Assembly (NCBI RefSeq): GCF_014284155.1
Contig: NZ_JACOFZ010000006.1
Span: forward strand, 1 to 64,000
Direction of reading: 5' to 3'
From: Affinundibacterium nitidum
GTDB taxonomy: Bacteria > Pseudomonadota > Gammaproteobacteria > Burkholderiales > Burkholderiaceae_D
Length of the DNA: 64,000 nt
Of the stretch, positions 27,568-59,952 are shown one piece after another. The translations under genes and the position numbers were made by a program. The stretch's first letter is position 1; every line of letters begins with the position of its first letter. The notes under the pieces were generated by a model. That model was not told where the DNA came from. It was given only the letters and a program-made list of their open reading frames with translations, and ran no database searches.

Positions 27568-27593
27568 AGGTCACGGGTCGATTGAATCTACTC

Positions 27594-29579
27594 ATGAGTG
27601 ATTCTTGCTTTTCCATGAAATTCGAACCCCAATTACATGCGTTAGATCCTTCGCGCCGCGCACAATTGCAGCAGCGAGTCGAAGAGCACTGGCCACAGCT
27701 TGAGGCGTGCTTAGAGCGTTTGTATGGAAAGAAAGCCGGGTACAGCGATTTCCTTGATGCGCTGTTGCAAGTGTTGGTGGATGCATCTTTGGAGAGAAGT
27801 GAAGAGTTATTGCAACTTGATGCACTACGTTTGCAGCGATCAGATTGGTTTTGCTCGGAAAATATGTTGGGGTACTGCGCGTACGTCGACCGCTTTGCAG
27901 GAAACTTGCAAGGTGTCGAACAACGAATTCCACATCTACAAAACTTAGGTGTCAGCTATCTCCATCTTTTGCCTTTCTTGAAGGCGAGAAAAGGGGGAAA
28001 CGACGGTGGCTTCGCGGTTGCCAGTTTCGAGGAAATTCAACCCGAGCTCGGCAATCTTAAGGATCTACTAAATCTGACGCGCAGCCTACGTCATGCCGGT
28101 ATTTCTCTGTGTTCTGATCTAGTCTTAAATCACGTAGCAGATGATCACCCATGGGCGCTTGCTGCAAAAAAAGGCGATCCACATTATCAAGCGTTCTTTC
28201 ATACGTTTGATGACCGTGTGCTGCCAGATCAGTATGAGCAAACGGTAGGGCAAATATTTCCGCAGGCTGCACCTGGCAATTTCACATTCGAGACGGGTTT
28301 GCAAAAATGGGTATGGACGACATTTTATCCATTTCAATGGGATTTAAACTACGCGAATCCACAGGTCTTGTTGCAAATGGTGAAGGCCATGCTGAATTTG
28401 GCCAACTGGGGAGTGGAAGTATTTCGTCTAGATTCGACTGCCTTTTTGTGGAAGCGTTTGGGCACCAATTGCATGAATCAGGACGAGGCGCATTGGATCT
28501 TGCAAGCTTTGCGCAGTATTGTACAAATCGCCGCTCCAGCCGTGGTATTGAAAGCTGAGGCAATTGTGCCGACGGCTGACCTTCCTGCGTATTTGGGCAA
28601 CGAGGAAAAGCAAATCAAAGAATGCCAAATTGCGTATCACAGTAGTTTAATGGCGTCGGCATGGATGGCATTGGCCGAGCAGAAAACTGATGTTTTGCAG
28701 TGCGTGATTGAACATACCCCAAGCTTGCCTAAGCAGGCGAGTTGGTTAACCTATGTGCGCTGTCACGATGACATAGGTTGGAATGTTTTGCGCGCTGAGG
28801 TGACGGCCGTGAGCGAATCGACCTCCATCGCACAAGAACGCTTGCAAGCGGTCTCCAGGTTTTATTCGGAACAAGGCGAAGGTTTTGCTGATGGCTTGCG
28901 CTTTCAAGCAAGTGACCCATCGGCTGTGCATGGCACGGTTGGAATGGCAGCCTCTTTGTGTGGCGTTAAAGGAAAAGCGTTGGCGTCGAATCAAATAGCG
29001 ACTCGTCGTATGTTGTTGATGTATGCACTGGCCATGAGTTTTGGAGGTATGCCCTTATTGTATATGGGTGATGAGTTCGCCCAAACTAATGATCGTTCGT
29101 ATCTTCAAGACATTGATCGCAGTCATGACGGACGCTGGTTGCAGAGACCTATGTTTGATGAAGTGGCGCTGAATCTGGTGCATCAAGCAGATCAAGGTAG
29201 TGTTTCTTATGTGCTCTATGCTGCGCTAATCCGCTTATTGGAGAAGCGTCGACAATCGCCAGCATTCTCCGCGGAGATTCCGGCCCATTTAATTCGACTG
29301 CCACACACTTCTATACTTGCCTTTGTACGCGGTGACTTTGACTGCAGAACGAATTCCAAACTTAAGCCCGTGCTGTGTCTATTTAATTTTTCCGACGCTG
29401 AGATAGTCTTGAATTGGAGTCAATTGGTGGAAGCGACAAAAGTGAGCCTAGGCGCGGGAGCCAATTATTTTTCGCGGAAAGACTTAAGTTGGTTTAGTGT
29501 GGATGAAGATGTATTGTTCAATGCGGAGGACGGTCATCGTGTTATGCTCAAAGCTTATGCAGCATTGTGGATTTCTTAG
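27594..29579 (+). CDS. Amylosucrase (GH13 subfamily 4)
   Basis: 661 residues from the ATG at 27594 (an in-frame TTG lies four codons earlier). Amylosucrase transfers glucose from sucrose to a growing alpha-1,4-glucan and releases fructose. The family-specific N-terminal helical domain is at 1-85. The GH13 barrel contains the nucleophile Asp at about 280 (FRLDSTAFLWK), the acid/base Glu at about 322 (KAEAIV) and HDDIGW at about 391, all lining up with the Neisseria polysaccharea enzyme. There is no signal peptide, so it acts in the cytosol on imported sucrose. It is followed by fructokinase and an MFS transporter. Confidence 0.93.
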   Translation: MSDSCFSMKFEPQLHALDPSRRAQLQQRVEEHWPQLEACLERLYGKKAGYSDFLDALLQVLVDASLERSEELLQLDALRLQRSDWFCSENMLGYCAYVDRFAGNLQGVEQRIPHLQNLGVSYLHLLPFLKARKGGNDGGFAVASFEEIQPELGNLKDLLNLTRSLRHAGISLCSDLVLNHVADDHPWALAAKKGDPHYQAFFHTFDDRVLPDQYEQTVGQIFPQAAPGNFTFETGLQKWVWTTFYPFQWDLNYANPQVLLQMVKAMLNLANWGVEVFRLDSTAFLWKRLGTNCMNQDEAHWILQALRSIVQIAAPAVVLKAEAIVPTADLPAYLGNEEKQIKECQIAYHSSLMASAWMALAEQKTDVLQCVIEHTPSLPKQASWLTYVRCHDDIGWNVLRAEVTAVSESTSIAQERLQAVSRFYSEQGEGFADGLRFQASDPSAVHGTVGMAASLCGVKGKALASNQIATRRMLLMYALAMSFGGMPLLYMGDEFAQTNDRSYLQDIDRSHDGRWLQRPMFDEVALNLVHQADQGSVSYVLYAALIRLLEKRRQSPAFSAEIPAHLIRLPHTSILAFVRGDFDCRTNSKLKPVLCLFNFSDAEIVLNWSQLVEATKVSLGAGANYFSRKDLSWFSVDEDVLFNAEDGHRVMLKAYAALWIS

Positions 29580-35654: not shown

Positions 35655-35731
35655 AAAGCGCTTTGGATTTTTGCTCAATAAAAAATCTAAAGCGCTTTGA
35701 GTTTTTTTTGAAAAAAAATGTAAAGCGCTTT
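35655..35731. promoter_or_regulatory. Array of three AAAGCGCTTT palindromes (putative maltodextrin-regulator operators)
   Basis: AAAGCGCTTT occurs at 35655-35664, 35689-35698 and 35722-35731, spaced 34 and 33 bp, each followed by G. A CG-centred even palindrome is typical of LacI-family operators. The same core occurs twice at 56621-56664 before the beta-phosphoglucomutase and maltose phosphorylase genes. The likely binder is the LacI-family protein encoded at 47848. An open frame across this region (35591-35800) only reflects the repeated DNA and is not a gene. Confidence 0.78.
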
Positions 35732-35770
35732 GAATATTGTCGTGAAAACTTGATAATAAAATTCTCGTTA

Positions 35771-36043: not shown

Positions 36044-38872
36044 ATGGAACAGAAAAGCCGTCAGCAACAACAGGTATCAAGCCTGAATCGTGCTGTATTA
36101 AAAATGACCCCAATCGCAGCCGGTTGTGCTGTGATGTTTGCATTGAGCTCTGGCAATGTGTACGCGCAACAAGCTGAAGCACCGAAAGCTGCTGCGCAAG
36201 AGCAAGCGCCTGATACTGTTGTTGTGACAGGTATTCGTCGTGGTATCGAAGCTGCGATTTCATTAAAGAAAAACTCCACATCCATCGTGGAAGCGATCTC
36301 TGCTGAAGATATCGGTAAGTTGCCAGATTCCAGCGTTGCTGAATCTATCTCCCGTTTGCCAGGTGTTACTTCACAACGTAGCCGTTCTTCTGGTAAATCA
36401 GCTGACATCAGTATTCGTGGTTTGGCACCATCGTTCAACGGTTCTTTATTGAATGGCCGTGAGCAAGCTTCCACAGGTAATGCACGCGCACCAGAATTCG
36501 ATCTGTTCCCAGCGGAATTGATGGGTTCTGTATTGATCTACAAAACACCAGACGCTTCTTTGGTTGGTCAAGGCTTGGCAGCGACTATCGACTTGAATAC
36601 TTTGAAGCCATTGGATTTCGGTAAGCAAGTGATCTCTGCAGCGTATCGCAAGCAACGTACTGGCGTGAAAACTTCCTCCGAAGGTTCAGGCGATCGTTAC
36701 TCTTTCTCTTATGTAGATCAATTTGCTGACCGTACAATCGGTTTGGCATTGGGCTTTACTAAGTTCAAAGAAGATGGTGGCGCGCAACAACGTTTCAATA
36801 CTTGGGGCGGTTGGAGCCCAGAAGTAGACTATCAAGGTAAGAAAGTTAAAACGATCGGTGGTTTCGGTGCTGATACTGAAACAAGTAAGAGCGATCGTGA
36901 TGGTGCTTCCGTTACTTTGCAATTTAAACCAAACAAAGACTTCAAATCGACAGTCGATATGTTCTACTCTGCAGGTAGCAACAGCTTGAAGAAAACTGGT
37001 TTGGAAGGCGCGATCGCTGGTTCTGCTGGTGGTTACGATCCAGACGGCGTATTGTCAAATGCAACAATCGATTCCAATGGTGTCGCTACAGCTGGTACAT
37101 TCAGCAACTACAAAGGTGTAGTGCGTAACCATAAAGAATCCGCAAAAGACAAATTCACATCGATCGGTTGGAATACTGAACTGAAACTCGATGACTGGAA
37201 ATTGAAAACAGATTTGTCTTACTCTAAAGCGAAAAAAGACGCATCTCGCTACGAAACAACAGCAGGTCAACCAGGCAATGCAGCGAGCTTGGGCTCTATT
37301 AGCTACACGGGCTTCAATGGCGGTAACTTCAATGACGTTAAGTACACGACATCTTTGAACTACGGTGATCGTAACGTTGCTCTTTTGACTGACGTGAACG
37401 GCTGGGGTGGTGGTGTTAATTCTCCACAAGCTGGTTATGTAGCATTGCCAACAGTAAACGATAAAGTGAATAGCTTCCGTATCGCTGCAAGCCACGAAGT
37501 AAGCTGGGGCCCAATCGTTAATACTCACTTCGGTTTGAACTACAACGATCGTGAAAAAATCCGTGCTGGTCAAGAAGGTCGCTTGGTTGTCAAAGGTGCT
37601 AATGGCTACGCAAGTGCTACAGTGCCAGGTTCTGCTGTAGGTACAGCGGGTACAACAGGCTTGCCTATCGTTTCCTTCGATCCAGAAGGCTCTTTGGGTC
37701 CAATTTATAGCTTGGCACAATGGGTAGACGCATCTGTGTTGGCAAAAGATTGGTCTGTTCGTGAGAAAGTCACTACAGCCTATGCAATGGGCGACCTCGA
37801 TGGCGATTTGGGCGGTGTTCCTTATCGTGGTAACGTTGGTGTGCAGTTCGTCAATACAGATCAATTCTCGACAGGTGCTCAAGTTGATTTGGCTTTCTGT
37901 ACCGGTATTACAGCGGCCACTTGCCCATCTAAAGTGGTAGGTGCGGGTACGACATATTCGAACATCTTGCCAAGTACAAACGTATCTTTCGAATTGGGTA
38001 ACGAACAGTTCATCCGTTTAGGTTTGGCGAAAGTATTGTCTCGTGCCAATATGGACGACATGCGTGCAAGCCAACAATTTGGTGTTACAACACAAGGTAA
38101 CAACCCAATCTTGACGGGTAGCGGCGGTAACCCAAATCTGAAGCCATTCTTGGCTAAAGCATTGGACGTGTCCTATGAAAAATACTTCGGTAACAAAGGC
38201 TACTTCAGCTTTGCTGGTTTCTACAAATCGCTCGATACTTACATTTATCGCGCACCGACAACGTTTGACTACAAACCATTCGTAAGTGCAAACACACCAT
38301 TGCCATTGACTGGTGCATACAAAGGTTCAACAGTCGGTTTGTTGACTGCACCACGTAACGGTGAAGGCGGTAAGATCTCTGGCTTCGAAATGTCTTTGAA
38401 CATTCCGTTGAACATGGTTTCAAGCTACCTCGATGGTTTCGGTGTCATGGTTAACCACTCTGATACAAATAGCCAAATCACTTTACCAGGCTTCGGTTTT
38501 AGCAATATCACAGTATCTTCTGCGAATATTCCATTGCCAGGTTTGTCTAAGAAAGTATCCAACTTGCGTTTGTACTATGAAAAAGATGGCTTCCAATTTG
38601 CATGGGCTGCTCGTAAGCGCTCTGACTTCTTGGGTCAAGTCAGCGACTATCAAGACAATATGCAGTTGACGATGGTTAAAGGCGAAACACTGGTGGACTT
38701 GCAAGCATCTTATGAGTTCAAAACAGGTTACTTGAAAGGTTTGTCTTTGTTGATTCAAGCGAATAACTGGAATAACACACCATTCCAAGAATACAACACA
38801 GATCCTAACGTCATTACAAATAAAGTTACCTACGGTAGAACTTATTTGTTCGGCGCAAACTACAAGTTCTAA
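36044..38872 (+). CDS. TonB-dependent receptor, probable maltodextrin receptor (MalA-like)
   Basis: 942 residues from the ATG at 36044, chosen over upstream in-frame codons because TTGGAG lies 7 bases before it and a signal sequence follows (NRAVLKMTPIAAGCAVMFAL, cleaved near VYAQQ). The TonB box is DTVVVTGIRRGIEAAI. The plug has EDIGKLPDSSVAESISRLPGVTSQR and ISIRGLAPSFNGSLLNGREQ, the pattern of the Xanthomonas/Caulobacter oligosaccharide receptor subfamily. The barrel ends in YLFGANYKF. Three AAAGCGCTTT operators precede it. A halogenase, MFS transporter and alpha-glucan hydrolases follow, suggesting maltodextrin as substrate. Confidence 0.88.
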   Translation: MEQKSRQQQQVSSLNRAVLKMTPIAAGCAVMFALSSGNVYAQQAEAPKAAAQEQAPDTVVVTGIRRGIEAAISLKKNSTSIVEAISAEDIGKLPDSSVAESISRLPGVTSQRSRSSGKSADISIRGLAPSFNGSLLNGREQASTGNARAPEFDLFPAELMGSVLIYKTPDASLVGQGLAATIDLNTLKPLDFGKQVISAAYRKQRTGVKTSSEGSGDRYSFSYVDQFADRTIGLALGFTKFKEDGGAQQRFNTWGGWSPEVDYQGKKVKTIGGFGADTETSKSDRDGASVTLQFKPNKDFKSTVDMFYSAGSNSLKKTGLEGAIAGSAGGYDPDGVLSNATIDSNGVATAGTFSNYKGVVRNHKESAKDKFTSIGWNTELKLDDWKLKTDLSYSKAKKDASRYETTAGQPGNAASLGSISYTGFNGGNFNDVKYTTSLNYGDRNVALLTDVNGWGGGVNSPQAGYVALPTVNDKVNSFRIAASHEVSWGPIVNTHFGLNYNDREKIRAGQEGRLVVKGANGYASATVPGSAVGTAGTTGLPIVSFDPEGSLGPIYSLAQWVDASVLAKDWSVREKVTTAYAMGDLDGDLGGVPYRGNVGVQFVNTDQFSTGAQVDLAFCTGITAATCPSKVVGAGTTYSNILPSTNVSFELGNEQFIRLGLAKVLSRANMDDMRASQQFGVTTQGNNPILTGSGGNPNLKPFLAKALDVSYEKYFGNKGYFSFAGFYKSLDTYIYRAPTTFDYKPFVSANTPLPLTGAYKGSTVGLLTAPRNGEGGKISGFEMSLNIPLNMVSSYLDGFGVMVNHSDTNSQITLPGFGFSNITVSSANIPLPGLSKKVSNLRLYYEKDGFQFAWAARKRSDFLGQVSDYQDNMQLTMVKGETLVDLQASYEFKTGYLKGLSLLIQANNWNNTPFQEYNTDPNVITNKVTYGRTYLFGANYKF

Positions 38873-38885
38873 TCTGAACCCGTAT

Positions 38886-38920
38886 AAAACCCCTGCGCGG
38901 CATGGCAGGGGTTTTTTTTT
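38886..38920 (+). terminator. Intrinsic terminator after the maltodextrin receptor
   Basis: An 11-bp stem (AAAACCCCTGC at 38886-38896, complement at 38905-38915) with an 8-base loop and a T9 tract. It separates the highly expressed receptor from the halogenase gene. Confidence 0.9.
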
Positions 38921-39106: not shown

Positions 39107-40633
39107 ATGAATAACGAAGCAAATCGCAACGAAGCCATTAAAAACGTCGTGATCGTCGGCGGTGGTACATCAGGTTGGATGACAGCGGCAGCTCTGGCCG
39201 TTGTTCTAAAAGGCAAATACCATATTCGCGTCGTCGAATCAGATGAAATCGGCATTGTCGGTGTAGGAGAAGCGACGATTCCGATGATACAGCGCTATAA
39301 CCAAATTCTCGGTATCGATGAAAACGAGTTTCTGCGTGAGACTCAAGGTACCTTCAAACTCGGTATCGAATTTGTGAATTGGGGTCGTCTCGGCGATCGT
39401 TATATGCACGGCTTCGGCACCATCGGTCAAGAGATGTGGACGGTGCGTTTTGATCAGTACTGGCAAAAATATAATCTGCAAGGCAAAGTGGCGAAGCTGG
39501 AGGAATATTCAATCACGCGTATGGCTTCGAAGAAAAATAAGTTCATGCCTGCCGATTTGAGCGTGCCGAATTCGCCTTTGAACCAAATCGTGCATGCCTA
39601 TCATTTTGATGCGAGTTTGTACGCCAAGTACTTACGTAAATTCTCTGAGGCGCGTGGAGTGGTGCGCACTGAAGGCAAAATTACCCAAGTCAAACAGCGC
39701 GAGAGCGATGGATTTATCGAATCTGTTGTCATGGAAAATGGTGAGCAAGTTCAAGGCGATTTATTTATCGACTGTTCCGGCTTCCGTGGGCTGTTGATCG
39801 AGCAAACGCTCAAAACAGGCTATGAAGACTGGACCCATTATTTGCCGTGCGATCGTGCTTTGGCAGTGCCGTGTGAATCCGCGCCAGTGCTTACACCCTA
39901 TACCCGCTCAACTGCACATAAAGCAGGTTGGCAATGGCGCATTCCGCTGCAACATCGTATTGGTAATGGTCATGTGTTTTGTAGTCAGTTCACGAGCGAA
40001 GATGAAGCGGCGGCAACGCTGTTGGAAAACCTCGATGGCAAGCCATTGGCTGACCCACGTCTAATCAAATTTACGACGGGAATGCGTAAGCAAGCATGGA
40101 ATAAAAATGTCATCGCAATTGGTTTGGCGGGTGGTTTCTTAGAGCCGCTTGAGTCGACCAGTATTCATTTGATTCAAACAGCGATTGCGCGCTTGATCAA
40201 CTTTTTCCCGAGCCGTCATTTTAATGAAGTGGATATCAAGGAATACAACCGCCAAAGCCGCTTCGAATTCGAGCGCATTCGCGATTTCGTGATCTTGCAT
40301 TACAAATTAAACCAGCGTGAAGACTCCGCCTTCTGGAACAACTGCGCCGAGATGGCAGTGCCGGATAGCCTCACTCACAAGATGGAAATGTACCGTGCCA
40401 GCGGACGTTTGCTGCGCGTTGACGACGAGTTGTTCGCCGAGATTGGTTGGTTGCAGGTACTCGAAGGGCAAAATATGCCGGTCGAAGGCTATCACCCACT
40501 AGTCGACTTGCAAACCGAAGAGGGTACTCTGGAATATTTAGAAAGCGTGCGTCAAGTCATCGCCAAGTGCGTTGATGTGATGCCTGACCATGCTGCCTAT
40601 ATTGCTAAACATTGTGCATCACCACGCATGTAA
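39107..40633 (+). CDS. Flavin-dependent (tryptophan-type) halogenase
   Basis: 508 residues. The FAD motif GGGTSGWM spans about 18-25. GVGEATIPMIQ is followed by TFKLGIEFVNW with Lys84 at the position of the catalytic lysine (Lys79 of PrnA). The halogenase signature WQWRIP is at 275-280 and FLEPLESTSIHL at about 344-355. All hallmarks of an active enzyme forming a lysine-bound haloamine from HOCl/HOBr are present. The substrate is unknown. Genes of this family are often found beside TonB receptors in sugar loci of Xanthomonas and Caulobacter relatives. A flavin reductase partner is not encoded nearby. The ATG at 39107 is preferred to an upstream codon. Confidence 0.92.
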   Translation: MNNEANRNEAIKNVVIVGGGTSGWMTAAALAVVLKGKYHIRVVESDEIGIVGVGEATIPMIQRYNQILGIDENEFLRETQGTFKLGIEFVNWGRLGDRYMHGFGTIGQEMWTVRFDQYWQKYNLQGKVAKLEEYSITRMASKKNKFMPADLSVPNSPLNQIVHAYHFDASLYAKYLRKFSEARGVVRTEGKITQVKQRESDGFIESVVMENGEQVQGDLFIDCSGFRGLLIEQTLKTGYEDWTHYLPCDRALAVPCESAPVLTPYTRSTAHKAGWQWRIPLQHRIGNGHVFCSQFTSEDEAAATLLENLDGKPLADPRLIKFTTGMRKQAWNKNVIAIGLAGGFLEPLESTSIHLIQTAIARLINFFPSRHFNEVDIKEYNRQSRFEFERIRDFVILHYKLNQREDSAFWNNCAEMAVPDSLTHKMEMYRASGRLLRVDDELFAEIGWLQVLEGQNMPVEGYHPLVDLQTEEGTLEYLESVRQVIAKCVDVMPDHAAYIAKHCASPRM

Positions 40634-41995: not shown

Positions 41996-43342
41996 ATGCA
42001 AAACAGTAGCGTATCAGGTAGTAAACCGAGTCTGTCGTTTTGGCAGATATGGAATATGAGTTTGGGTTTTTTCGGTATCCAATTCGGCTTTGCCTTACAG
42101 AATACCAATACCAGCCGTATTTTCGCCACGCTCGGTGCCGACATCGATAAGCTATCGATTTTGTGGTTAGCTGCACCGATCACTGGCTTGTTAGTGCAGC
42201 CTGTAATTGGCTATCTCAGCGACAATACTTGGCATCCGAAATGGGGCCGTCGCCGTCCATTCTTTTTCATCGGCTCTTTGTTGGCATCGATTGCGATGTT
42301 TTTAATGCCAAACTCTGGGGCATTGTGGATGGCGGTGTTTGTGTTGTGGTTGATGGATGCTTCCATCAATATTTCGATGGAGCCTTTCCGCGCGTTTGTG
42401 GGTGATAAGTTGAACACCAGCCAGCAAACCGGTGGTTTCGCGATGCAGACTTTCTTTATCGGCTGCGGCGGTGTAATCGCCTCCTTGTTGCCAACCATTT
42501 TTACCAACTATCTTGGTGTCAGTAATGATGCTGTGAACGGCACTATTCCAGATACCGTGAAGTACTCTTTCTATGTTGGCGGTGCAGTGTATTTCCTTTC
42601 TGTGTTGTGGACGGTATTGACGAGCACCGAAGACGCACCAGCTGATATGGCCAAGTTTGAAGCGGAACGCGCAGCCAATAAAGGTCTGGTCAATGCAGTG
42701 AAAGAGATTTTAGGCGGTTTCTTCAAAATGCCTAAGACCATGATCCAACTGGCGATTGTGCAGTTCTTTACTTGGGTTGCCTTGTTTGCGATGTGGGTGT
42801 ACACCACGCCTTCGATTGCTGATGGTGTGTTCCATGCAACTGACGCGCAATCAAGTGCATACCAAGAAGCGGGTAACTGGGTTGGTATTATGTTTGCGAT
42901 GTATGGCGGTGTCTCTGCGATTGCAGCCTTCCTCTTGCCATGGTTGGCCAAATTTACTAGCCGCAAATCTGTTCATTTGATTTGCCTCGTCATCGGTGGT
43001 GTTAGCTTGATGAGTATCTTCGCGATCACATCAAAAGAAATGTTGTTATTGCCTATGGTGGGTGTTGGTGTTGCTTGGGCGAGCGTATTGACTATGCCTT
43101 ACGCCATCCTCGCAGGTTCCCTGCCATCAAATAAGATGGGTTACTACATGGGCTTGTTCAACTTCTTCGTGGTGATTCCGCAAATCGTCGCGGGCGTTGT
43201 ATTGGGTGCGATTTTGAAGAATTTCTTTGCCAACCAGTCAGTCAAAGTCTTGATGCTCGGTGGCGCATGCATGGTGTTAGCGGGATTGCTGACATTGGTC
43301 GTGCAAGATGATGCAGACAAAGTAGACGCTACTTCAGTATAA
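41996..43342 (+). CDS. MFS sugar transporter, probable maltose/maltodextrin permease (SLC45/GPH-like)
   Basis: 448 residues, twelve predicted helices. PSLSFWQIWNMSLGFFGIQFGFALQNTNTSRI opens it, and GYLSDNTWHPKWGRRRPFFFIGS is the loop 2-3 motif. It is paralogous to the sucrose transporter at 30739, with the same FWQI-N-GFFGIQF start. The operon context (MalS-like amylase, GH31 glucosidase, LacI) points to maltose, like MalY of Caulobacter. TGAGAGGAAG precedes the ATG. Confidence 0.88.
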   Translation: MQNSSVSGSKPSLSFWQIWNMSLGFFGIQFGFALQNTNTSRIFATLGADIDKLSILWLAAPITGLLVQPVIGYLSDNTWHPKWGRRRPFFFIGSLLASIAMFLMPNSGALWMAVFVLWLMDASINISMEPFRAFVGDKLNTSQQTGGFAMQTFFIGCGGVIASLLPTIFTNYLGVSNDAVNGTIPDTVKYSFYVGGAVYFLSVLWTVLTSTEDAPADMAKFEAERAANKGLVNAVKEILGGFFKMPKTMIQLAIVQFFTWVALFAMWVYTTPSIADGVFHATDAQSSAYQEAGNWVGIMFAMYGGVSAIAAFLLPWLAKFTSRKSVHLICLVIGGVSLMSIFAITSKEMLLLPMVGVGVAWASVLTMPYAILAGSLPSNKMGYYMGLFNFFVVIPQIVAGVVLGAILKNFFANQSVKVLMLGGACMVLAGLLTLVVQDDADKVDATSV

Positions 43343-43410: not shown

Positions 43411-45135
43411 ATGTTGCGCTCAACGACGAAAATGACGAAAATAACGACTGTAGGTTTAAGCTTAGTGGCCTCGCTAGCTATGATGTCTGGTGTGCAAGCG
43501 AAGCCAAATGCGGTAATGGCTGCAACCAGCAAGGTGCAGGCCAAAGCATTTCATTGGAAAAATGCCACTGTCTATTTTCTGTTGACTGATCGCTTCAACA
43601 ATGCTGACCATCGTAATGATTTGAGTTACGGGCGAAAAGCAGACGCCGCGCCCTTGCGCGGGTATATGGGCGGTGACCTCAAAGGCATTACCGCTAAAAT
43701 CAAAGAAGGCTATTTCGAAAAACTCGGTGTCGATGTTTTGTGGATGACGCCGCCTGTTGAGCAGATTCATGCCGGTACGGATGAAGGTACAGGTAAGTCT
43801 TATGGTTTCCACGGTTATTGGGCGAGAGACTTCACGCGCGTCGATGCCAATCTGGGTACTGACAAAGATTTTAAAGAAATGGTGGAAACCGCACACCAAC
43901 ATGGCATGCGTGTGTTGCTCGATGTGGTGATGAACCACACGGGGCCGGTCACAGAAACAGATCCAGTTTGGCCTGCCGATTGGGTGCGGACCTCACCACA
44001 ATGTGATTACAAAAACGCCGATGGTGCGATCAAATGTACCTTGGTAAAAAACTTACCTGACTTTCTGACCGAGAGCGATCAAGCGGTGGCATTGCCGCCG
44101 ATGCTCGTTGCGAAGTGGAAGAAAGAAGGGCGCTACGAACAAGAAGTGAAAGAGCTAGATCAGTTCTTCGCGAAGACCGGCTATCCACGTGCGCCGCGTT
44201 TCTATTTGATGAAGTGGCATGCCGACTGGATTAAAAAATATGGTGTTGATGGTTTCCGGGTTGATACCGTCAAGCACGTTGAAGCCAAAGTGTGGAAAGA
44301 GTTAAAGCAGGTGGCCAGCGCGGCCTACGAAGAATGGAAGGCTGCACATCCAAAGCGTAAGTTGAGCAACGAGGCCTTCTTCATGACCGCTGAAGCCTAC
44401 AATTACGATATTCAAGACGGTTTGCAATTCCGCATGGATGGCGGTACGCGTGTGAATTATTACGCCAATGGCTTCGACAGCATGATTAACTTCGGTTTGA
44501 AGTTCGCTGCTCACCAAGAATACGAAGCCATCTTCTCCCGCTATGATCAGATTCTGCATGGCGAATTGAAAGACTATTCCGTCTTAAATTACATCAGCTC
44601 TCACGATGATGACAAACCATTCGATCCTGCACGTAAGCGCAATTTCGAAGCCGCCAACAAGCTCTTGTTAGCACCAGGTGCGGCGCAGATCTATTACGGC
44701 GATGAAACCGCACGTTCATTAGTGCAGCCACAAGCACAAGGCGATGCGGTGTTGCGTTCGATGATGAATTGGGATGATCTCAAACGCAATTCTCCCTTAC
44801 CAGATCAAGCGGGCGTGAATTACCAAGATGTGCTGCGTCATTGGCAAAAGCTAGGGCAATTCCGTCAAGCGCATCTCGCTGTTGGGATGGGGCGTCATCA
44901 ACAATTGCAAGCATCACCGTATGTGTTTGAACGCAGTTTGCACGAGGGTACGCAACAAGACTACGTCATCGTCGCACTTGATTTACCGAAAGCGCCGCAA
45001 CACGTGATCCCAGCAGGACAGTTCAAAGAAGGGCAACGTGTGCATGACGCTTATAGCGGAACTGAGAGCGTGGTCAAAGACGGTAAATTAGTTTTTTCCA
45101 CTGGTTTTCCGGTGCTGCTATTGAGCGCGAAATAA
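43411..45135 (+). CDS. malS: Periplasmic alpha-amylase, MalS-like (GH13 subfamily 19)
   Basis: 574 residues with a signal peptide (hydrophobic to about 25, cleaved near VQA). GH13 regions: DVVMNHTG (I), GFRVDTVKHVE with nucleophile Asp285 (II), MTAEAYNYD with acid/base Glu328 (III), ISSHDDDKPFD with Asp399 (IV). The helix EWKAAHPKRKLSNEAFFMTAEA and NGFDSMINF are very like E. coli MalS, though about 100 residues shorter at the N terminus. It would cut maltodextrins in the periplasm after TonB-dependent uptake. GAAGG precedes the ATG. Confidence 0.88.
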   Translation: MLRSTTKMTKITTVGLSLVASLAMMSGVQAKPNAVMAATSKVQAKAFHWKNATVYFLLTDRFNNADHRNDLSYGRKADAAPLRGYMGGDLKGITAKIKEGYFEKLGVDVLWMTPPVEQIHAGTDEGTGKSYGFHGYWARDFTRVDANLGTDKDFKEMVETAHQHGMRVLLDVVMNHTGPVTETDPVWPADWVRTSPQCDYKNADGAIKCTLVKNLPDFLTESDQAVALPPMLVAKWKKEGRYEQEVKELDQFFAKTGYPRAPRFYLMKWHADWIKKYGVDGFRVDTVKHVEAKVWKELKQVASAAYEEWKAAHPKRKLSNEAFFMTAEAYNYDIQDGLQFRMDGGTRVNYYANGFDSMINFGLKFAAHQEYEAIFSRYDQILHGELKDYSVLNYISSHDDDKPFDPARKRNFEAANKLLLAPGAAQIYYGDETARSLVQPQAQGDAVLRSMMNWDDLKRNSPLPDQAGVNYQDVLRHWQKLGQFRQAHLAVGMGRHQQLQASPYVFERSLHEGTQQDYVIVALDLPKAPQHVIPAGQFKEGQRVHDAYSGTESVVKDGKLVFSTGFPVLLLSAK

Positions 45136-45208
45136 TCTATTTTGATTTTGGTGGGCGATTGTTCTCGCCAAGTGATTCTTTTATCTGATGTCGTTTGAAA
45201 AGAAAAGT

Positions 45209-47731
45209 ATGATGAAAAAATTGAGTGTGCCTGCTTTGTCTTTGTCCTCATCTCTGGTGAGTCTTGCTGTCATGAGCCTGTGTGCGATGAGCGCGACCGC
45301 GCATGCGCAAAACACCGAGCGACGTTTTGAGTCTGCGAAACGTTTTAAAGACCACGTGGAAGTGCGCACCAATGATGGCGTGTATGTGATCAAGCCCTAC
45401 TCAAACGAGATTTTTGAAACCAGTTTTATTCCGAAAGAGCAAAGTAGTGCTACTGCAGGCAGCGATCTGATCAAGAACAAGTCACATGCTGTGGTCGCCG
45501 TGCCGCAAAGGCTGAAAACCCGCTTTGTGCAATCGGGTGCGTATGTAGAATACGGCAGCGCAGGCTTGAGCGTGCAAATTCGTAAATCCCCATTTCAGCT
45601 GAAGTATTTTTACCAAGACAAACTGCTGACGTCGGAAAAGCTCGGGTACCAAACCATCAAAGACAAACAAGCAGATGCTGACCCTAACCTCACGCCGAAT
45701 CGTGAACGCCTGAGTTTTAATCTTGACGCCAACGAAGCTTTATATGGTGGCGGTGCACGTGCACTAGGTATGAATCGTCGCGGCAATCGCTTGCCTTTGT
45801 TTAACAAGGCGCATTACGGTTACGAAGAGCGCTCACAACAAATGAATTACAGTATTCCTTTGGTGTATTCATCAAAGTTGTATGCGATCCATTTCGATAA
45901 TGCAGCCATCGGTCATCTTGATCTCGATAGTCAGCACGATAATTCCTTGAACTACGACACCATCGGTGGTCGTAAAACCTACCAAGTCATCGCTGGTAAA
46001 AATTGGCAAGAATTGGTGACTAACTATGTTGGCCTCACAGGTAAACAACCACTGCCACCGCGCTGGGCTTTCGGTAATTTTGCCAGCCGTTTTGGTTATC
46101 ACAGCGAAGACGAAGCACGTAAAGTCATCGCCCAATTCCGCGCTGAAAAAATGCCGGTCGATGCCATCATTTTCGACTTGTACTGGTTCGGCAAGGATAT
46201 CAAAGGCACCATGGGCAATCTCGCCTTCGATGCTGACAATTTCAAAAATCCACGTGGCATGATTGCCGACTTTGCACAGCAAGGCGTCAAGACCGTGTTA
46301 ATTACCGAGCCTTTCATTTTGACGACCTCGCAGCGTTGGAAAGAGGCGGTTGACCAAGGTATTTTGGCGACCGACGGCAAAGGCAAGCCTTTCACCTATG
46401 ATTTCTATTTCGGGAACACAGGCTTAATCGATGTCTTCAAACCGCAAGCGCGCACTTGGTTTTGGAATATCTATAAAGACTTAGCACAACAAGGTGTAGC
46501 AGGTGTATGGGGTGATTTGGGCGAGCCTGAAGTGCATCCAAGCGCGCTAAAACATGAAGGGGCGAGTGCCGATGAAGTCCACAATATTTACGGGCACGAA
46601 TGGGCAAAGCTGGTGGCTGATGGCTACCGCAAAGACTTTCCACAGCAACGTCCATTTATCTTGATGCGTGCAGGCTCTTCTGGTTCGCAACGCTTTGGTT
46701 TGATTCCATGGTCCGGTGACGTTAATCGCACCTGGGGTGGATTACGTTCGCAAACCGAAATCGCCTTGCAAATGGGTATGCAAGGCTTGGCCTATATGCA
46801 TTCAGACTTAGGCGGGTTTGCCGGCGCAAATCTTGATGACGAGCTATATGCGCGTTGGTTGCAATACGGTGTGTTCCAACCGGTATTCCGTCCGCACGCA
46901 CAAGAAGAAGTGCCTGCCGAGCCTATCTTCCGTTCAGAGCAAGCCAAAGCCTTGGCGCGCCAAGCGATTGAATTGCGCTATCGCCTTTTGCCGTACAACT
47001 ACACGCTAGCGTTTGAGAATAGCCAAACCGGCATGCCTTTGATGCGCCCCGGTTTCTTTGCTGAACCGGGTAATGCTGAGCTCTTGAAAGACGCCAGCAC
47101 GTTTTTGTGGGGCCAAGATTTCTTGGTGCAACCGGTGACCAACCCGGGCCAAAAGACGGCGAATGTGCGCTTCCCAGCTGATAGCGCCTGGATTAATTTC
47201 TATTCCGGCCAACGTCATGCGGCAGCGAGCCAAAGCTTAGAGCAGCTAGAAGCAAGCCATATTCCTGTGTTTGTTCGTGCTGGTGCTTTTATTCCTATGG
47301 TGCCCGAGCAAGCAAAGTTACAAAGCACTCAATTCTATGACGGCAGCCAACTTGAGCTGCATTACTACCATGATGAAAGCGTCGCTAACAGCCAGCGTCA
47401 ACTCTATGAAGATGATGGCCTGACGTCAGATGCTTGGGCAAAAGGAATCTATCGTCTAAGCCACCTGAAGGCGCAATGGAACAAGCCGAGCAATACAAAA
47501 CCAGCATCCTTGATGATTGAATTACAGCAGACTCTTGGCAAGGCAGCACCGCAAGCATTGAAGCAAGAACGCCAAACGCTTGTGGTGTTGCATCAAATTA
47601 CCAGCCAACCAAAACAAGTATTGCTCAATGGCGCGCCTGTAAATATGGAGTGGGAAGCTCAGCAACAAGAGCTGAGAGTCAGTTTGAGTGAGAAAGCCGG
47701 TAGTAAGAATCAGTTGAAGGTGCTGTGGTAG
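45209..47731 (+). CDS. Exported alpha-glucosidase (GH31)
   Basis: 840 residues from the ATG at 45209, which follows GAAAAG; an in-frame ATG at 45188 would add seven residues. The signal peptide ends near AHAQ. An N-terminal beta-sandwich is followed by the GH31 barrel: FASRFGYHSEDEARKVIAQFR, nucleophile Asp436 in GVWGDLGEPE, acid/base Asp504 in WSGDVNRTWGGLR, and DLGGFAG. C-terminal beta-domains include LYEDDGLT. GDLGEPE rather than DMNEP marks a bacterial exo-acting subfamily. It should release glucose or maltose in the periplasm or at the outer membrane. Confidence 0.88.
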   Translation: MMKKLSVPALSLSSSLVSLAVMSLCAMSATAHAQNTERRFESAKRFKDHVEVRTNDGVYVIKPYSNEIFETSFIPKEQSSATAGSDLIKNKSHAVVAVPQRLKTRFVQSGAYVEYGSAGLSVQIRKSPFQLKYFYQDKLLTSEKLGYQTIKDKQADADPNLTPNRERLSFNLDANEALYGGGARALGMNRRGNRLPLFNKAHYGYEERSQQMNYSIPLVYSSKLYAIHFDNAAIGHLDLDSQHDNSLNYDTIGGRKTYQVIAGKNWQELVTNYVGLTGKQPLPPRWAFGNFASRFGYHSEDEARKVIAQFRAEKMPVDAIIFDLYWFGKDIKGTMGNLAFDADNFKNPRGMIADFAQQGVKTVLITEPFILTTSQRWKEAVDQGILATDGKGKPFTYDFYFGNTGLIDVFKPQARTWFWNIYKDLAQQGVAGVWGDLGEPEVHPSALKHEGASADEVHNIYGHEWAKLVADGYRKDFPQQRPFILMRAGSSGSQRFGLIPWSGDVNRTWGGLRSQTEIALQMGMQGLAYMHSDLGGFAGANLDDELYARWLQYGVFQPVFRPHAQEEVPAEPIFRSEQAKALARQAIELRYRLLPYNYTLAFENSQTGMPLMRPGFFAEPGNAELLKDASTFLWGQDFLVQPVTNPGQKTANVRFPADSAWINFYSGQRHAAASQSLEQLEASHIPVFVRAGAFIPMVPEQAKLQSTQFYDGSQLELHYYHDESVANSQRQLYEDDGLTSDAWAKGIYRLSHLKAQWNKPSNTKPASLMIELQQTLGKAAPQALKQERQTLVVLHQITSQPKQVLLNGAPVNMEWEAQQQELRVSLSEKAGSKNQLKVLW

Positions 47732-47847: not shown

Positions 47848-48861
47848 ATGAACCTGAAAAGCCTTGCTCAACAATTGGGGATCTCGGAAACGACGGTGAG
47901 TCGCGCCCTGAATGGTTATCCTGAAGTCAGCGAACGTACGCGCCAACGCGTGCTAGCGGCCGCCGAAGAATTTGGATATCGCCCTAATCCTATGGCGCGT
48001 AGCCTTGCCTCTGGCCGAACGAACGTCATTGGTATCGTCCATCCTTTGTTCCCCAATGATTTAGCCGACCCGATGTTCATGCAAATCGTCGGTGGTATGG
48101 TGGAAGCCCTAGAAGCCCGCCAGATGGACCTTATCATGGCGCCAGTCTCGCCGTTGCATGAATTACGCGCTTACGAACACATCGTCAAAGAACGCCGTGT
48201 TGATGGCCTGATCGTCGGTCGTACACATTTGTATGATGAACGCATTGCTTATTTGGCGAAACAAGGTCTCCCTTTTGTCGCGCACGGTCGTACTAGCATC
48301 AATGAGCCGCATGCCTGGTTCGATTACGATAACGAAGCTGGCATGCGTATCGCTGTCGAACATTTACTGGCACACGGCCATCAACGCATAGGCTTGATCA
48401 GCGCCCCGCTCGACATGAACTTCGCGCGCCAACGTTTCGCTAGTTTCGGCAAGGCACTCGACGCTGCAGGCCTCAAAGCAGACCCACGCCACTTAATTGA
48501 AAACACCAACGACAGACGCAGCGGCTATCTCGCCATGCAGAAGATCTTGGCAAGCGACACTCCACCAAGCGCGGTCATCGTCGACAACCACATGTCAGGT
48601 GTAGGCGCCATGCGTGCTTTACTCGATGCGGGTGTCAAAATCGGTCAAGACATGTCCATCATCGTCTGGGGCAAAATGGAAGACTCACTTGCAGGCTACC
48701 ACGTCACCACGATCGACCAACCACACCCCGACTTAGCAGGCGCGAAGATGATAGAGATGCTGCTGTCACTGCAAGCGGGAACACCGCCAGAACAATTGCA
48801 AGTGTTGTGGCAACCGGTGCTGGTGCCGGGCGAGACTGTGGGGCAGGTGAAGTTGGGGTAG
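47848..48861 (+). CDS. LacI-family regulator of the maltodextrin regulon
   Basis: 337 residues. The helix-turn-helix begins at residue 1 (MNLKSLAQQLGISETTVSRALNGYPEVSERTR), followed by hinge FGYRPNPMARSLASGRT and a sugar-binding domain. It closes the MFS-amylase-GH31 group and resembles AglR/MalR-type repressors. Its probable targets are the five AAAGCGCTTT palindromes at 35655-35731 and 56621-56664. No such site lies just before its own gene. The ribosome site is weak. Confidence 0.85.
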   Translation: MNLKSLAQQLGISETTVSRALNGYPEVSERTRQRVLAAAEEFGYRPNPMARSLASGRTNVIGIVHPLFPNDLADPMFMQIVGGMVEALEARQMDLIMAPVSPLHELRAYEHIVKERRVDGLIVGRTHLYDERIAYLAKQGLPFVAHGRTSINEPHAWFDYDNEAGMRIAVEHLLAHGHQRIGLISAPLDMNFARQRFASFGKALDAAGLKADPRHLIENTNDRRSGYLAMQKILASDTPPSAVIVDNHMSGVGAMRALLDAGVKIGQDMSIIVWGKMEDSLAGYHVTTIDQPHPDLAGAKMIEMLLSLQAGTPPEQLQVLWQPVLVPGETVGQVKLG

Positions 48862-56620: not shown

Positions 56621-56664
56621 CAAAGCGCTTTGAATTAAACTTCGAAGCAGTCCAAAGCGCTTTG
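56621..56664. promoter_or_regulatory. Pair of CAAAGCGCTTTG palindromes (putative maltodextrin-regulator operators)
   Basis: 12-bp perfect palindromes at 56621-56632 and 56653-56664, 32 bp apart, in the divergent gap before beta-phosphoglucomutase. The same 10-bp core occurs three times before the maltodextrin receptor at 33-34 bp spacing, so the sites very probably bind the same LacI-family protein (gene at 47848). Confidence 0.78.
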
Positions 56665-56697: not shown

Positions 56698-56808
56698 TGA
56701 GTCTCTAGCGAGTAGTTCCTTGGGAACGATGTGAATCGCAATAGAGAACAGAAATTGGAGAACATCAGTTCAGCGCTGCATTGTTTGTTGTACCAACCAG
56801 ATCCGTTT

Positions 56809-57639: not shown

Positions 57640-59952
57640 ATGAGAGACTATATTAAGAAAGACCCGTGGAATATTATCGAAGAAGGATTTGATCCTGCTT
57701 TGAACCGCATTTCCGAAAGTATTTTTTCCATTGGTAACGGCAAGATGGGCCAGCGCGCTAACTTTGAAGAAAAGTATAGCGGTAGTAGCTTGCGTGGTAG
57801 CTATGTGGCGGGTGTTTATTATCCAGATAAAACACGCGTGGGTTGGTGGAAGAATGGTTATCCCGAGTATTTTGCAAAAGTCCTCAATGCCACCAATTGG
57901 ATCGGTATTAACGTCGCCATCGATGGTGAGGAATTAGATCTGGCCACCGCCAAAGTCTCTGCATTTACGCGTGTCCTGAATATGCGTGAAGGTTTGTTGC
58001 AGCGTCAATTTGTCGCAACCCTGCCATCCGGTAAGCAAGTGCAAGTGCGCTCCACACGCTTCACGAGTATTGTCGATGCCGACAATGGCGTGATTCGTTA
58101 TGAAGTGACGCCATTAAACTTCTCCGGCAAGATTCGTTTTACACCCTTGATCGATTTGAACGTCTTCAATCAAGACTCCAACTACGACGAGCAATTTTGG
58201 ACAGAAGTGTCGCGTGCAGCAGGTAATGGCAGCGCGGTGATCACGGGCGAAACCAAAAAGACACAATTCCATGTGGCTACAGCCTTTGCGATTGAGCTTG
58301 CTCTCGCTGGTGAAAAACAAGCGATCAATGCTGAAGTAGTCACTCAAGACAAATTTGTGGCGAACGTCGTTGAAGTGAATGCTACACAAGACCAGACAGC
58401 AACCTTGTTTAAGTATGCTGCTGTGATTTCTTCACTGTATTCCGACAAAGCTGCTATCCAAAGTGATGCGGAGAAGAGTGCAGCAGCAGCGATGAGCAAA
58501 GGTTTCGATACGCTGTTAAAAGAACATAGCGATGCTTGGATTCAGAAATGGGCTGAGTGCGATATCACGATTGAAGGCGATGTCGCTGCTCAGCAAGCGA
58601 TTCGCTTCAATATTCTGCAAATGAACCAAACCTACACCGGTGAAGATGAGCGTTTGAACATCGGCCCGAAAGGATTCACTGGCGAAAAATACGGCGGTGT
58701 GACGTACTGGGATACGGAAGCTTACTGCTTACCGTTCTACCTGAAAACGGCAGACCCGAAAGTCGCTCGTCAACTTTTGGTGTATCGCTATAAGCATTTG
58801 CAAAAAGCGATAGAGAATGCAGCTAAGTTAGGTTTTAAAGACGGTGCAGCACTGTATCCGATGGTGACTATCAACGGTGAGGAATGCCATAACGAATGGG
58901 AAATTACGTTTGAAGAAATTCATCGTAACGGTGCCATGAGTTTTGCGATCTATAACTACATCAACCATACCGGTGATACAGGCTATTTGGCTGAATATGG
59001 TTTGGAAGTCTTGATCGCGATTTCACGCTTCTGGCGTCAACGCGTGCAATGGTCAGACCGTCGCAATGGCTACATCATGCTTGGTGTGACAGGCCCTAAC
59101 GAATACGAGAACAACGTTAATAACAATTGGTACACCAACTTGTTGGCGCAATGGACCTTGAACTACACACGCGAATCTTTGGCGCAAGTGCAAGCAAGTA
59201 ATCCAGCACGTTATGCCGAGATCGTACAAAAGACCAACTTTGGTGCGAAAGAAGATGAGCTCGCTGCGTGGAGTGATATCGCCGCGAAGATTGTATTGCC
59301 AGTCGATCAGCAAACCGGTGTCTTTATTCAGCACGATGGTTTCATGGATAAAGATTTGCAACCGATGTCTGCTATTCCAAAAGGCGAATACCCGATTCAT
59401 AAGAATTGGTCATGGGATCGTATTCTGCGCTCGTGCTACATCAAGCAAGCCGACGTCTTGCAAGGCATCTATACCTTCGAAGCGAATTACGACAAAGAGA
59501 CCTTGCGTAAAAACTTTGACTTTTACGAGCCATTGACAGTACATGAGTCGTCTTTGTCGCCATGTATACATTCGATCTTGGCATCGTCTTTGGGTTATGA
59601 AGACTTAGCGTATAAATTCTATTTGCGTACCGCGCGTTTAGACTTGGATGACTACAACCACGACACCGATGATGGCTTGCATATTACGTCGATGGCGGGT
59701 ACGTGGATGTCCGTGGTGGAAGGTTTTGGTGGCGTGCGTGTACAACAAGGCCAATTGCGTTTGGCTCCAGCATTACCGAAGCAATGGCAAGGCTACTCTT
59801 TCCGCATCACTTTCCGTGGTGCCTTGGTTAAAGTAGCCGTGACGCCAAATGCGGTGATCTTGGAAAACGAATCCGATACGGCATTGAACGTACATGTGTA
59901 TGGCGCGGAGAAAAATTTGCCAGCGCGCCAAATACTGAGCGTCGCTCGTTAA
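57640..59952 (+). CDS. malP: Maltose phosphorylase (GH65)
   Basis: 770 residues. It phosphorolyses maltose to glucose and beta-glucose-1-phosphate in the cytosol. SIGNGKMGQRANFEEKYSG, GVYYPDKTRVGWWKNGYP, HNEWEITFEEIHRNG, GVTGPNEYENNVNNNW with catalytic Glu488, and VHESSLSPCIHS follow the Lactobacillus maltose phosphorylase very closely along the whole length. Kojibiose and trehalose phosphorylases are related, but the motifs and neighbours favour maltose. It forms a pair with pgmB. Confidence 0.93.
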   Translation: MRDYIKKDPWNIIEEGFDPALNRISESIFSIGNGKMGQRANFEEKYSGSSLRGSYVAGVYYPDKTRVGWWKNGYPEYFAKVLNATNWIGINVAIDGEELDLATAKVSAFTRVLNMREGLLQRQFVATLPSGKQVQVRSTRFTSIVDADNGVIRYEVTPLNFSGKIRFTPLIDLNVFNQDSNYDEQFWTEVSRAAGNGSAVITGETKKTQFHVATAFAIELALAGEKQAINAEVVTQDKFVANVVEVNATQDQTATLFKYAAVISSLYSDKAAIQSDAEKSAAAAMSKGFDTLLKEHSDAWIQKWAECDITIEGDVAAQQAIRFNILQMNQTYTGEDERLNIGPKGFTGEKYGGVTYWDTEAYCLPFYLKTADPKVARQLLVYRYKHLQKAIENAAKLGFKDGAALYPMVTINGEECHNEWEITFEEIHRNGAMSFAIYNYINHTGDTGYLAEYGLEVLIAISRFWRQRVQWSDRRNGYIMLGVTGPNEYENNVNNNWYTNLLAQWTLNYTRESLAQVQASNPARYAEIVQKTNFGAKEDELAAWSDIAAKIVLPVDQQTGVFIQHDGFMDKDLQPMSAIPKGEYPIHKNWSWDRILRSCYIKQADVLQGIYTFEANYDKETLRKNFDFYEPLTVHESSLSPCIHSILASSLGYEDLAYKFYLRTARLDLDDYNHDTDDGLHITSMAGTWMSVVEGFGGVRVQQGQLRLAPALPKQWQGYSFRITFRGALVKVAVTPNAVILENESDTALNVHVYGAEKNLPARQILSVAR

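What the first reader, a model, noticed from the sequence alone, without database searches (positions are those of the whole stretch)
39107..40633. Catalytically intact flavin-dependent halogenase inside a maltodextrin utilisation locus
FAD motif, catalytic Lys84, WxWxIP and the LEPLEST Glu are all present, so the enzyme should halogenate something. Yet its neighbours are a maltodextrin TonB receptor, sugar transporter and alpha-glucan hydrolases, and no biosynthetic cluster or flavin reductase is seen. The recurring association of such halogenases with TonB sugar loci lacks an explained substrate. Possibilities include modification of a receptor-derived or aromatic compound, or detoxification or signalling linked to sugar uptake.
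Basis: partly seen in the sequence, partly recalled or inferred. Interest (0 to 1): 0.75.

Follow-up and report, generated by a model that had tools for sequence, protein, structure and literature searches.

The report
Halogenase paired with TonB sugar receptor
Next to the outer-membrane starch-sugar receptor gene of an environmental bacterium sits an apparently intact gene for an enzyme that attaches bromine or chlorine to aromatic rings; related bacteria repeat this pairing for several different sugars, so the enzyme probably serves the receptor rather than antibiotic making, but what it halogenates is unknown.

Summary
39107-40633 (+) encodes an intact flavin-dependent halogenase (PF04820, 654 bits) with its catalytic residues, nearest among solved enzymes to 9luq, Xcc4156 and BrvH. 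It follows a TIGR01782 TonB receptor (36044-38872) in a maltodextrin locus. The association is systematic: in 80 relatives a TonB receptor lies within three genes in 68 and directly upstream on the same strand in 59. In an independent genome sample 18 of 24 halogenases lie within 7 kb of a receptor. Neighbouring glycosidases point to different sugars (alpha-glucan, beta-glucan, fucoside, xyloside, galactoside), so the shared partner is the receptor, not the sugar. Two further regularities emerged: a terminator-like hairpin lies between receptor and halogenase in 40 of 51 gaps (about 3 expected), and 2OG-Fe(II) oxygenases (DUF6445, so identified here by motif and predicted fold), Cupin_8 or SapC genes recur nearby. 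Published structures of this clade show an indole pocket without the clamp for free tryptophan. My leading reading is a receptor-operon accessory enzyme acting on polypeptide-bound tryptophan, the receptor being first candidate. That step is inference: a candidate receptor Trp (W454) tracks the halogenase only imperfectly, and some maltodextrin loci lack the gene.

The parts
35655..35731 (.). three AAAGCGCTTT palindromes (35655, 35689, 35722; 33-34 bp apart), putative LacI-family operators
   Evidence: 2-3 copies upstream of the receptor in L011-L013
36044..38872 (+). TonB-dependent receptor, TIGR01782 TonB-Xanth-Caul type, MalA-like by locus; carries W454 (LTDVNGWGG)
   Evidence: 545 bits; for W454
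38886..38915 (+). intrinsic-terminator-like hairpin plus T-run between receptor and halogenase
   Evidence: nearly invariant in L011-L013; such hairpins in 40 of 51 receptor-halogenase gaps
39107..40633 (+). flavin-dependent halogenase, BrvH/Xcc4156 clade, 508 aa
40742..41941 (+). Na+/H+ (CPA2-like) antiporter
41996..43342 (+). MFS transporter, probably sugar
43411..45135 (+). GH13 alpha-amylase family enzyme
45188..47731 (+). GH31 alpha-glucosidase family enzyme
47848..48861 (+). LacI-family regulator, candidate binder of AAAGCGCTTT (inference)
27582..29579 (+). GH13 enzyme upstream in the same region
57640..59952 (+). GH65 family enzyme (maltose phosphorylase-like); two AAAGCGCTTT sites (56622, 56654) lie about 1 kb upstream, ORF 56731-57462 between

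Best explanation
A catalytically competent, cytoplasmic BrvH/Xcc4156-type halogenase that belongs to the sugar-receptor transcription unit. SHOWN by sequence: intact active site, clade membership, systematic pairing with TonB receptors in alpha-, beta- and gammaproteobacteria and beside glycosidases for different sugars, operator-like palindromes before the receptor, terminator-like hairpin before the halogenase. INFERRED: no export signal is apparent, so it works in the cytoplasm; the unit is derepressed by maltodextrin through a LacI regulator; partial read-through of the terminator makes the halogenase at a fraction of receptor level, as suits an enzyme; FADH2 comes from a flavin reductase encoded elsewhere; FADH2, O2 and bromide or chloride give HOX, which reaches an indole ring by way of Lys84. 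As the clamp for the amino and carboxyl groups of free Trp is missing and the pocket is open in solved clade members, the substrate is most likely a Trp side chain in a polypeptide, first candidate the receptor precursor before export, where halogenation would tune binding, gating or resistance to receptor-targeting agents. My odds: locus accessory 0.93; active halogenase 0.85; polypeptide substrate 0.5; the receptor itself 0.35.
For: Receptor within 3 genes in 68 of 80 loci, directly upstream same strand in 59 of 80, median gap 92 bp; 18 of 24 halogenases of the class sample within 7 kb of a receptor; genome-level co-occurrence 7 of 12 halogenase genomes vs 7 of 262 others, p 1e-7; a receptor adjacent or one gene away in 9 of 9 plasmid contexts that I picked; hairpin in 40 of 51 gaps; receptor and halogenase distances correlate r 0.88-0.96 in loci where either correlates 0.23-0.40 with GH13 or MFS genes; pocket facts from passages of PMC5945002 and PMC7336383, with H101, F103, F443 kept here; a halogenase acting on Trp in peptides and on one Trp of an intact protein is known, ChlH, PMC12518702 (abstract, passages and section 15); 2OG oxygenase, Cupin_8 and SapC neighbours suggest a modification set.
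Against: No halogenated receptor has been seen. The beta-glucan ABC locus of this same genome (L007) and of L041, L043, L068 has a halogenase and no receptor in the operon; 12 of 80 loci have no receptor within three genes. Receptors L196 and L198 keep W454 with no halogenase in the locus, and 11 of 64 halogenase-adjacent receptors lack W454. The enzyme is cytoplasmic while receptors work in the outer membrane. The halogenase correlates with LacI at least as strongly as with the receptor in the 16 loci where that could be measured (0.86 vs 0.76). 5 of 24 sampled halogenases are unlinked to receptors. In vitro the clade brominates free indole, if slowly, which leaves small molecules open. ChlH modified only 1 of 97 Trp in seven proteins tested. 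Related maltodextrin loci do without the gene.
Confidence: 0.38

Rival explanations
1. Small-molecule indole or aromatic halogenase: it halogenates indole, an indole derivative or another aromatic metabolite, whose product acts as signal, antimicrobial or chemical mark when sugar is abundant; it sits in sugar operons for timing only.
For: Characterised clade members brominate indole and indole derivatives in vitro (PMC5945002, PMC7336383 passages); a halogenase also occurs in a receptor-less ABC sugar operon (L007).
Against: Low activity on indole and native substrates unknown by the authors' own words; among the neighbour families shown no biosynthetic or export family recurs (only the top 25 families of each scan are shown); a receptor gene directly upstream in 59 of 80 loci is left unexplained.
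Confidence: 0.35
2. Non-halogenating flavin enzyme: in the cell it works as a flavin monooxygenase, peroxide or hypohalite source or redox sensor, and halogenation in vitro is incidental.
For: Known clade members prefer or need bromide, which is scarce in fresh water (recalled, no call); no PF01613 flavin reductase is linked.
Against: K84, E349, both Trp of WxWxI are invariant and the S350-S352 stretch is kept in 69-73 of 73 sequences, as expected if halogenation itself is selected.
Confidence: 0.12
3. Biosynthetic halogenase of an unrecognised peptide or natural-product cluster that happens to lie beside the sugar locus.
For: Family members such as PrnA serve such clusters (recalled).
Against: No cluster genes among the window genes scanned; repeated pairing with receptors in the 80-locus, class and plasmid samples.
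Confidence: 0.03

Closest known systems
Xcc4156 (PDB 6y1w) of Xanthomonas campestris
   Same: 46.6% identity over the printed stretch, same clade in the tree, TM 0.95, active-site residues
   Different: native substrate unknown too; no receptor context in the passages I saw
BrvH (PDB 6frl) of Brevundimonas
   Same: 45.7% identity, ungapped alignment in the loop that replaces the Trp lid
   Different: studied as an in vitro brominase of indole; the passages report a second halogenase upstream and no receptor
Pseudoalteromonas sp. L11 tryptophan halogenase (PDB 9luq)
   Same: 51.4% identity, the best-scoring solved sequence
   Different: no paper on it seen
PrnA / RebH tryptophan halogenases
   Same: fold and catalytic Lys/Glu, WxWxIP
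   Different: 38.7% identity to PrnA over its first part; RebH has a long lid over free Trp, by PMC5945002; natural-product clusters (recalled)
ChlH / MibH peptide halogenases
   Same: functional precedent for Trp in peptides (ChlH abstract, passages and section 15; MibH from passages)
   Different: peptide-product clusters; membership of this clade not tested
MalA-type TonB maltodextrin uptake of Caulobacter (PMC1790865 passages)
   Same: receptor and sugar-uptake logic
   Different: 'halogenase' has 0 occurrences in that paper's main text

Membership tests
Flavin-dependent halogenase (PF04820) | full-length domain above the curated cut-off | tested here: met
   654 bits vs cut-off 21
Flavin-dependent halogenase (PF04820) | FAD motif, catalytic Lys, WxWxIP, catalytic Glu | tested here: met
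Flavin-dependent halogenase (PF04820) | halide- and FADH2-dependent halogenation | not testable with these tools
   needs an assay
BrvH/Xcc4156 indole-halogenase clade | phylogenetic placement with BrvH and Xcc4156, apart from PrnA | tested here: met
   105-row clade, SH-aLRT 99, quick tree rooted by my choice on PrnA and LooH
BrvH/Xcc4156 indole-halogenase clade | short loop instead of the Trp-clamping lid | tested here: met
   ungapped alignment to BrvH there; model loop 433-444 between two helices; lid lengths of BrvH and RebH from PMC5945002
Free-tryptophan halogenase (PrnA/RebH) | lid residues binding amino and carboxyl groups | tested here: not met
   indirect: the loop is as short as BrvH's; the alignment to PrnA itself stops at residue 435, before that region
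Two-component halogenase system | linked flavin reductase | tested here: not met
   the only PF01613 match of the genome is on another contig; other reductase families not searched
TonB carbohydrate utilisation locus | receptor, inner-membrane transporter, glycosidases, regulator together | tested here: met
Receptor-modifying enzyme | covalent modification of the receptor | not testable with these tools
   indirect test by Trp conservation inconclusive

The most novel reading that the evidence does not exclude
A widespread receptor-modification cassette: flavin halogenase, 2OG-Fe(II) oxygenase (DUF6445), Cupin_8 and SapC proteins act in varying combinations on the TonB receptor beside which they are encoded, halogenating or hydroxylating side chains before export, so that bacteria tune or protect their receptors (for instance against phages or bacteriocins). 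A Pelagibacter phage carries a 2OG oxygenase and a halogenase back to back among its terminase and tail genes, which would be the same chemistry used on structural proteins.
Probability: 0.22. Interest if true: 0.92.

Novelty: new variant of a known kind. Interest (0 to 1): 0.64.

Why it matters
A clade of halogenases studied in vitro without a known native substrate turns out to be tied to outer-membrane receptor genes in most of the contexts sampled here. That replaces 'unknown substrate' by a short list that one proteomics and one metabolomics experiment on a gene deletion could decide. If the receptor is the substrate, it would be, as far as I know, a new kind of protein modification in bacteria; if a small molecule is, it would be a sugar-triggered halogenated metabolite in many environmental bacteria.

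Tried and rejected
Receptor Trp as a halogenation mark. In halogenase-adjacent receptors (49 rows) all 5 Trp columns conserved at 60% or more were rare in 21 non-adjacent TIGR01782 receptors (5 of 5 vs 78 of 290 other conserved columns, p 0.0016), but the two sets differ in kinship (mean identity 37% inside the first, 27% inside the second). W454, recounted: W in 42 of 49 adjacent rows (missing in L038, L064, L075, L079, L088, L089, L135), in 5 of 7 adjacent rows of the class sample and 6 of 8 adjacent plasmid rows, together 53 of 64; in receptors without a local halogenase 2 of 10 (L196 and L198 yes; L180-L182, L189-L191, L200, L201 no), and 3 of the 21-row set carry a W there. 53 of 64 vs 2 of 7 (the seven nearer ones) gives p 0.005, vs 2 of 10 p 0.0002 (and my note had one W too many). 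Rows are related, only 1.5-5 kb around each receptor was looked at, and L196 and L198 break the rule, so I do not claim it. L196's plasmid has halogenases elsewhere; the L198 record is not among the 60 of 80 records listed there and its chromosome was not seen.

A seed called TBDR_49 proved to be a pullulanase; counts (70 and 61 of 80) are replaced (68 and 59 of 80), and row L049 was dropped from the hairpin count (40 of 52 became 40 of 51). In the tree the 'TBDR' label is wrong or unproven for L048, L049, L150 and L160. Three of the 40 hairpins (L028, L071, L073) are weak (4-6 pairs). The first gene calls were spoiled by antisense ORFs and replaced; gene calling was my own script, not a standard caller. 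The sigma-70-like match at 35730-35757 is no better than chance (2 found, 7.9 expected). Neighbour family scans show only the top 25 families (99 and 54 families matched), so a rare flavin reductase neighbour cannot be excluded in the 80 loci; 147 unlabelled genes three or four places away were not scanned.

In-print check: ten paper searches (listings) showed no paper in the held library whose listing deals with a halogenase next to TonB receptors; subscription journals are largely missing, and annotators have surely seen the pairing. I recall, from no call, that such genes were noted near TonB genes in Caulobacter and Shewanella annotation; the Shewanella sugar paper holds no 'halogenase'. 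Only passages were seen of PMC7336383, PMC5945002, PMC8269204, PMC1790865, PMC11337851 and PMC2996990.

Full report
What is there. The window lies in a genome of 4.38 Mb whose nearest halogenase relatives are Undibacterium and a Burkholderiales bin (84-85% identity). ORF 39107-40633 is a full-length PF04820 halogenase. K84, H101, F103, W275, W277, E346 and E349 are invariant in 73 of 73 aligned sequences; the predicted fold matches Xcc4156, 9luq and BrvH at TM 0.93-0.95. It stands 234 bp behind a TIGR01782 TonB receptor and before a CPA2-like antiporter, MFS carrier, GH13, GH31 and LacI genes.

Own genome. Four full-length halogenases were found: this one; one directly behind a receptor (L008) without evident sugar genes; one divergent from a receptor with GH1, MFS and LacI (L009); one inside a beta-glucan-type ABC operon with LacI, GH5, GH1 and GH3 and no receptor in the operon (L007). 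A further match is a weak FAD protein. Four receptors pass the TIGR01782 cut-off; only the window's has a halogenase beside it. One PF01613 flavin reductase was found, unlinked.

How general. With corrected labels a TonB receptor lies within three genes in 68 of 80 and directly upstream on the same strand (tandem halogenases skipped) in 59 of 80; a labelled glycosidase lies within six genes in 62 and a LacI gene in 33. Of the 12 without a receptor, six have under 5 kb of upstream sequence, and L041, L043 and L068 are the ABC locus. Because those loci were chosen by likeness, I took 274 genomes drawn across the class: 12 have a strong halogenase, 14 a TIGR01782 receptor, 7 both (p 1e-7; 1e-6 without the window's genome). 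Of 24 halogenases outside this genome 18 lie within 7 kb of a receptor, 5 do not, 1 is at a contig edge (the two least clear contigs re-read, the largest distance being 6.7 kb). Plug-domain counts in two of these genomes (32 and 42) would, at about a gene per kb, put a receptor within three genes of a random gene about 6% of the time. In 60 genomes of the order three carried strong halogenases; of the five outside this genome three are receptor-linked and for two no receptor was found.

Sugars differ. Nine plasmid contexts, picked by me from the 60 listed of 80 records among proteobacterial rows with annotation, all have a receptor next to the halogenase or one gene away; neighbours include GH95 and fucosidase, GH43 and beta-xylosidase, GH68, amylosucrase and GH3. 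Of 12 receptor loci fetched from 22 plasmid hits, 8 have a halogenase beside the receptor, several with starch, fucose or galactose genes; L196, L198, L200 and L201 have none. L196 is an alpha-glucan locus in the gene order of L193 minus the halogenase, L198 likewise except that its MFS gene was not seen: the halogenase is an accessory, not essential to the locus.

Regulation. Three AAAGCGCTTT sites 33-34 bp apart precede the receptor; 5 of the genome's 13 sites lie in this window, two of them about 1 kb before a GH65 gene. Relatives L011-L013 have three, two and two, 33 bp apart; more distant relatives L014-L016 have none. Between receptor and halogenase stands an 11-pair hairpin with a T-run (38886-38915), nearly invariant in L011-L013 while its surroundings diverge. 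Of 51 receptor-halogenase gaps of 30-360 bp, 40 hold such a hairpin, about 3 expected from letter shuffles. I read this as high receptor, low halogenase output from one promoter; a separate promoter in the gap is not excluded, and receptors without a halogenase were not checked for such hairpins.

Family and pocket. In a quick tree of 118 sequences the window's enzyme, BrvH, Xcc4156, 9luq and most receptor-linked enzymes form one clade (SH-aLRT 99), rooted by choice on PrnA and LooH; five receptor-linked enzymes lie outside it and several outer rows have long branches. From passages of two papers: BrvH and Xcc4156 do not take free Trp, keep most residues around the indole ring, lack those that hold its amino and carboxyl groups, and their authors suggested a peptide substrate; native substrates unknown. 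The window enzyme aligns to BrvH without gaps in that loop.

Co-evolution. Over 48 pairs halogenase and receptor distances correlate at r 0.60; in loci with GH13 (27) or MFS (15) controls at 0.88 and 0.96, whereas the halogenase correlates with those genes at 0.23 and 0.35; with LacI (16 loci) at 0.86 against 0.76 for the receptor there. Control genes may mix paralogues. So the receptor is the steadier partner in the first two sets and LacI in the third.

A modification set? DUF6445 genes occur in 11 of 84 loci (two of them weak matches) and stand between receptor and halogenase in L209 and L210; a gene named 2OG-Fe(II) oxygenase does so in L206. All 10 aligned DUF6445 rows keep HxD...H and R; the model (pLDDT 91.8) finds prolyl 4-hydroxylase and other 2OG oxygenases first (best E 2.4e-5, TM about 0.43-0.47 for the best). 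A Cupin_8 cluster occurs in 7 loci; SapC genes in L203, L204, L215, L216 and 2 of the 80 loci. Pelagibacter phage HTVC008M has a 2OG oxygenase and a halogenase side by side among terminase and tail genes. This suggests, without proving, enzymes that act on proteins.

Conclusion. Established: an intact halogenase of a kind systematically tied to TonB receptor operons. Open: its substrate. I favour a polypeptide Trp, the receptor first, at 0.38 for the whole chain; a small aromatic molecule follows closely at 0.35.

Noticed in passing
L008:2228-2962 and related loci (A6): DUF6445 (PF20043), listed as of unknown function, has HxD...H...R and a predicted 2OG-Fe(II) oxygenase fold, and recurs near halogenase-receptor pairs.
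   Followed up: partly
L214:3448-5407 (Pelagibacter phage HTVC008M): 2OG-Fe(II) oxygenase and tryptophan halogenase genes overlap by a few bases between the small and large terminase genes; halogenase matches occur in 65 phage records, mostly cyanophages.
   Followed up: partly
L064, L088, L213, L202: Two or three halogenase genes in tandem behind one receptor; 8 of 80 loci have a second one within three genes.
   Followed up: no
L215:1132-6039 and L216:1834-8294: SapC-like genes lie between two halogenases (L215) and between receptor and halogenase (L216).
   Followed up: no
window 56622-56663: Two more AAAGCGCTTT sites upstream of ORF 56731-57462 and a GH65 gene, suggesting one maltose regulon.
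   Followed up: partly
window 25086-27389: A second, different TonB receptor stands before the upstream GH13, PfkB and MFS genes and has no halogenase beside it.
   Followed up: no
MT837902.1 and MT835646.1 (phage collection): Halogenase matches of 49-50% identity in unannotated 'Bacteriophage sp.' contigs from human fecal samples; may be bacterial DNA.
   Followed up: no
L196 and L198 vs L193: Similar starch loci with and without the halogenase, natural presence/absence cases for comparison.
   Followed up: partly
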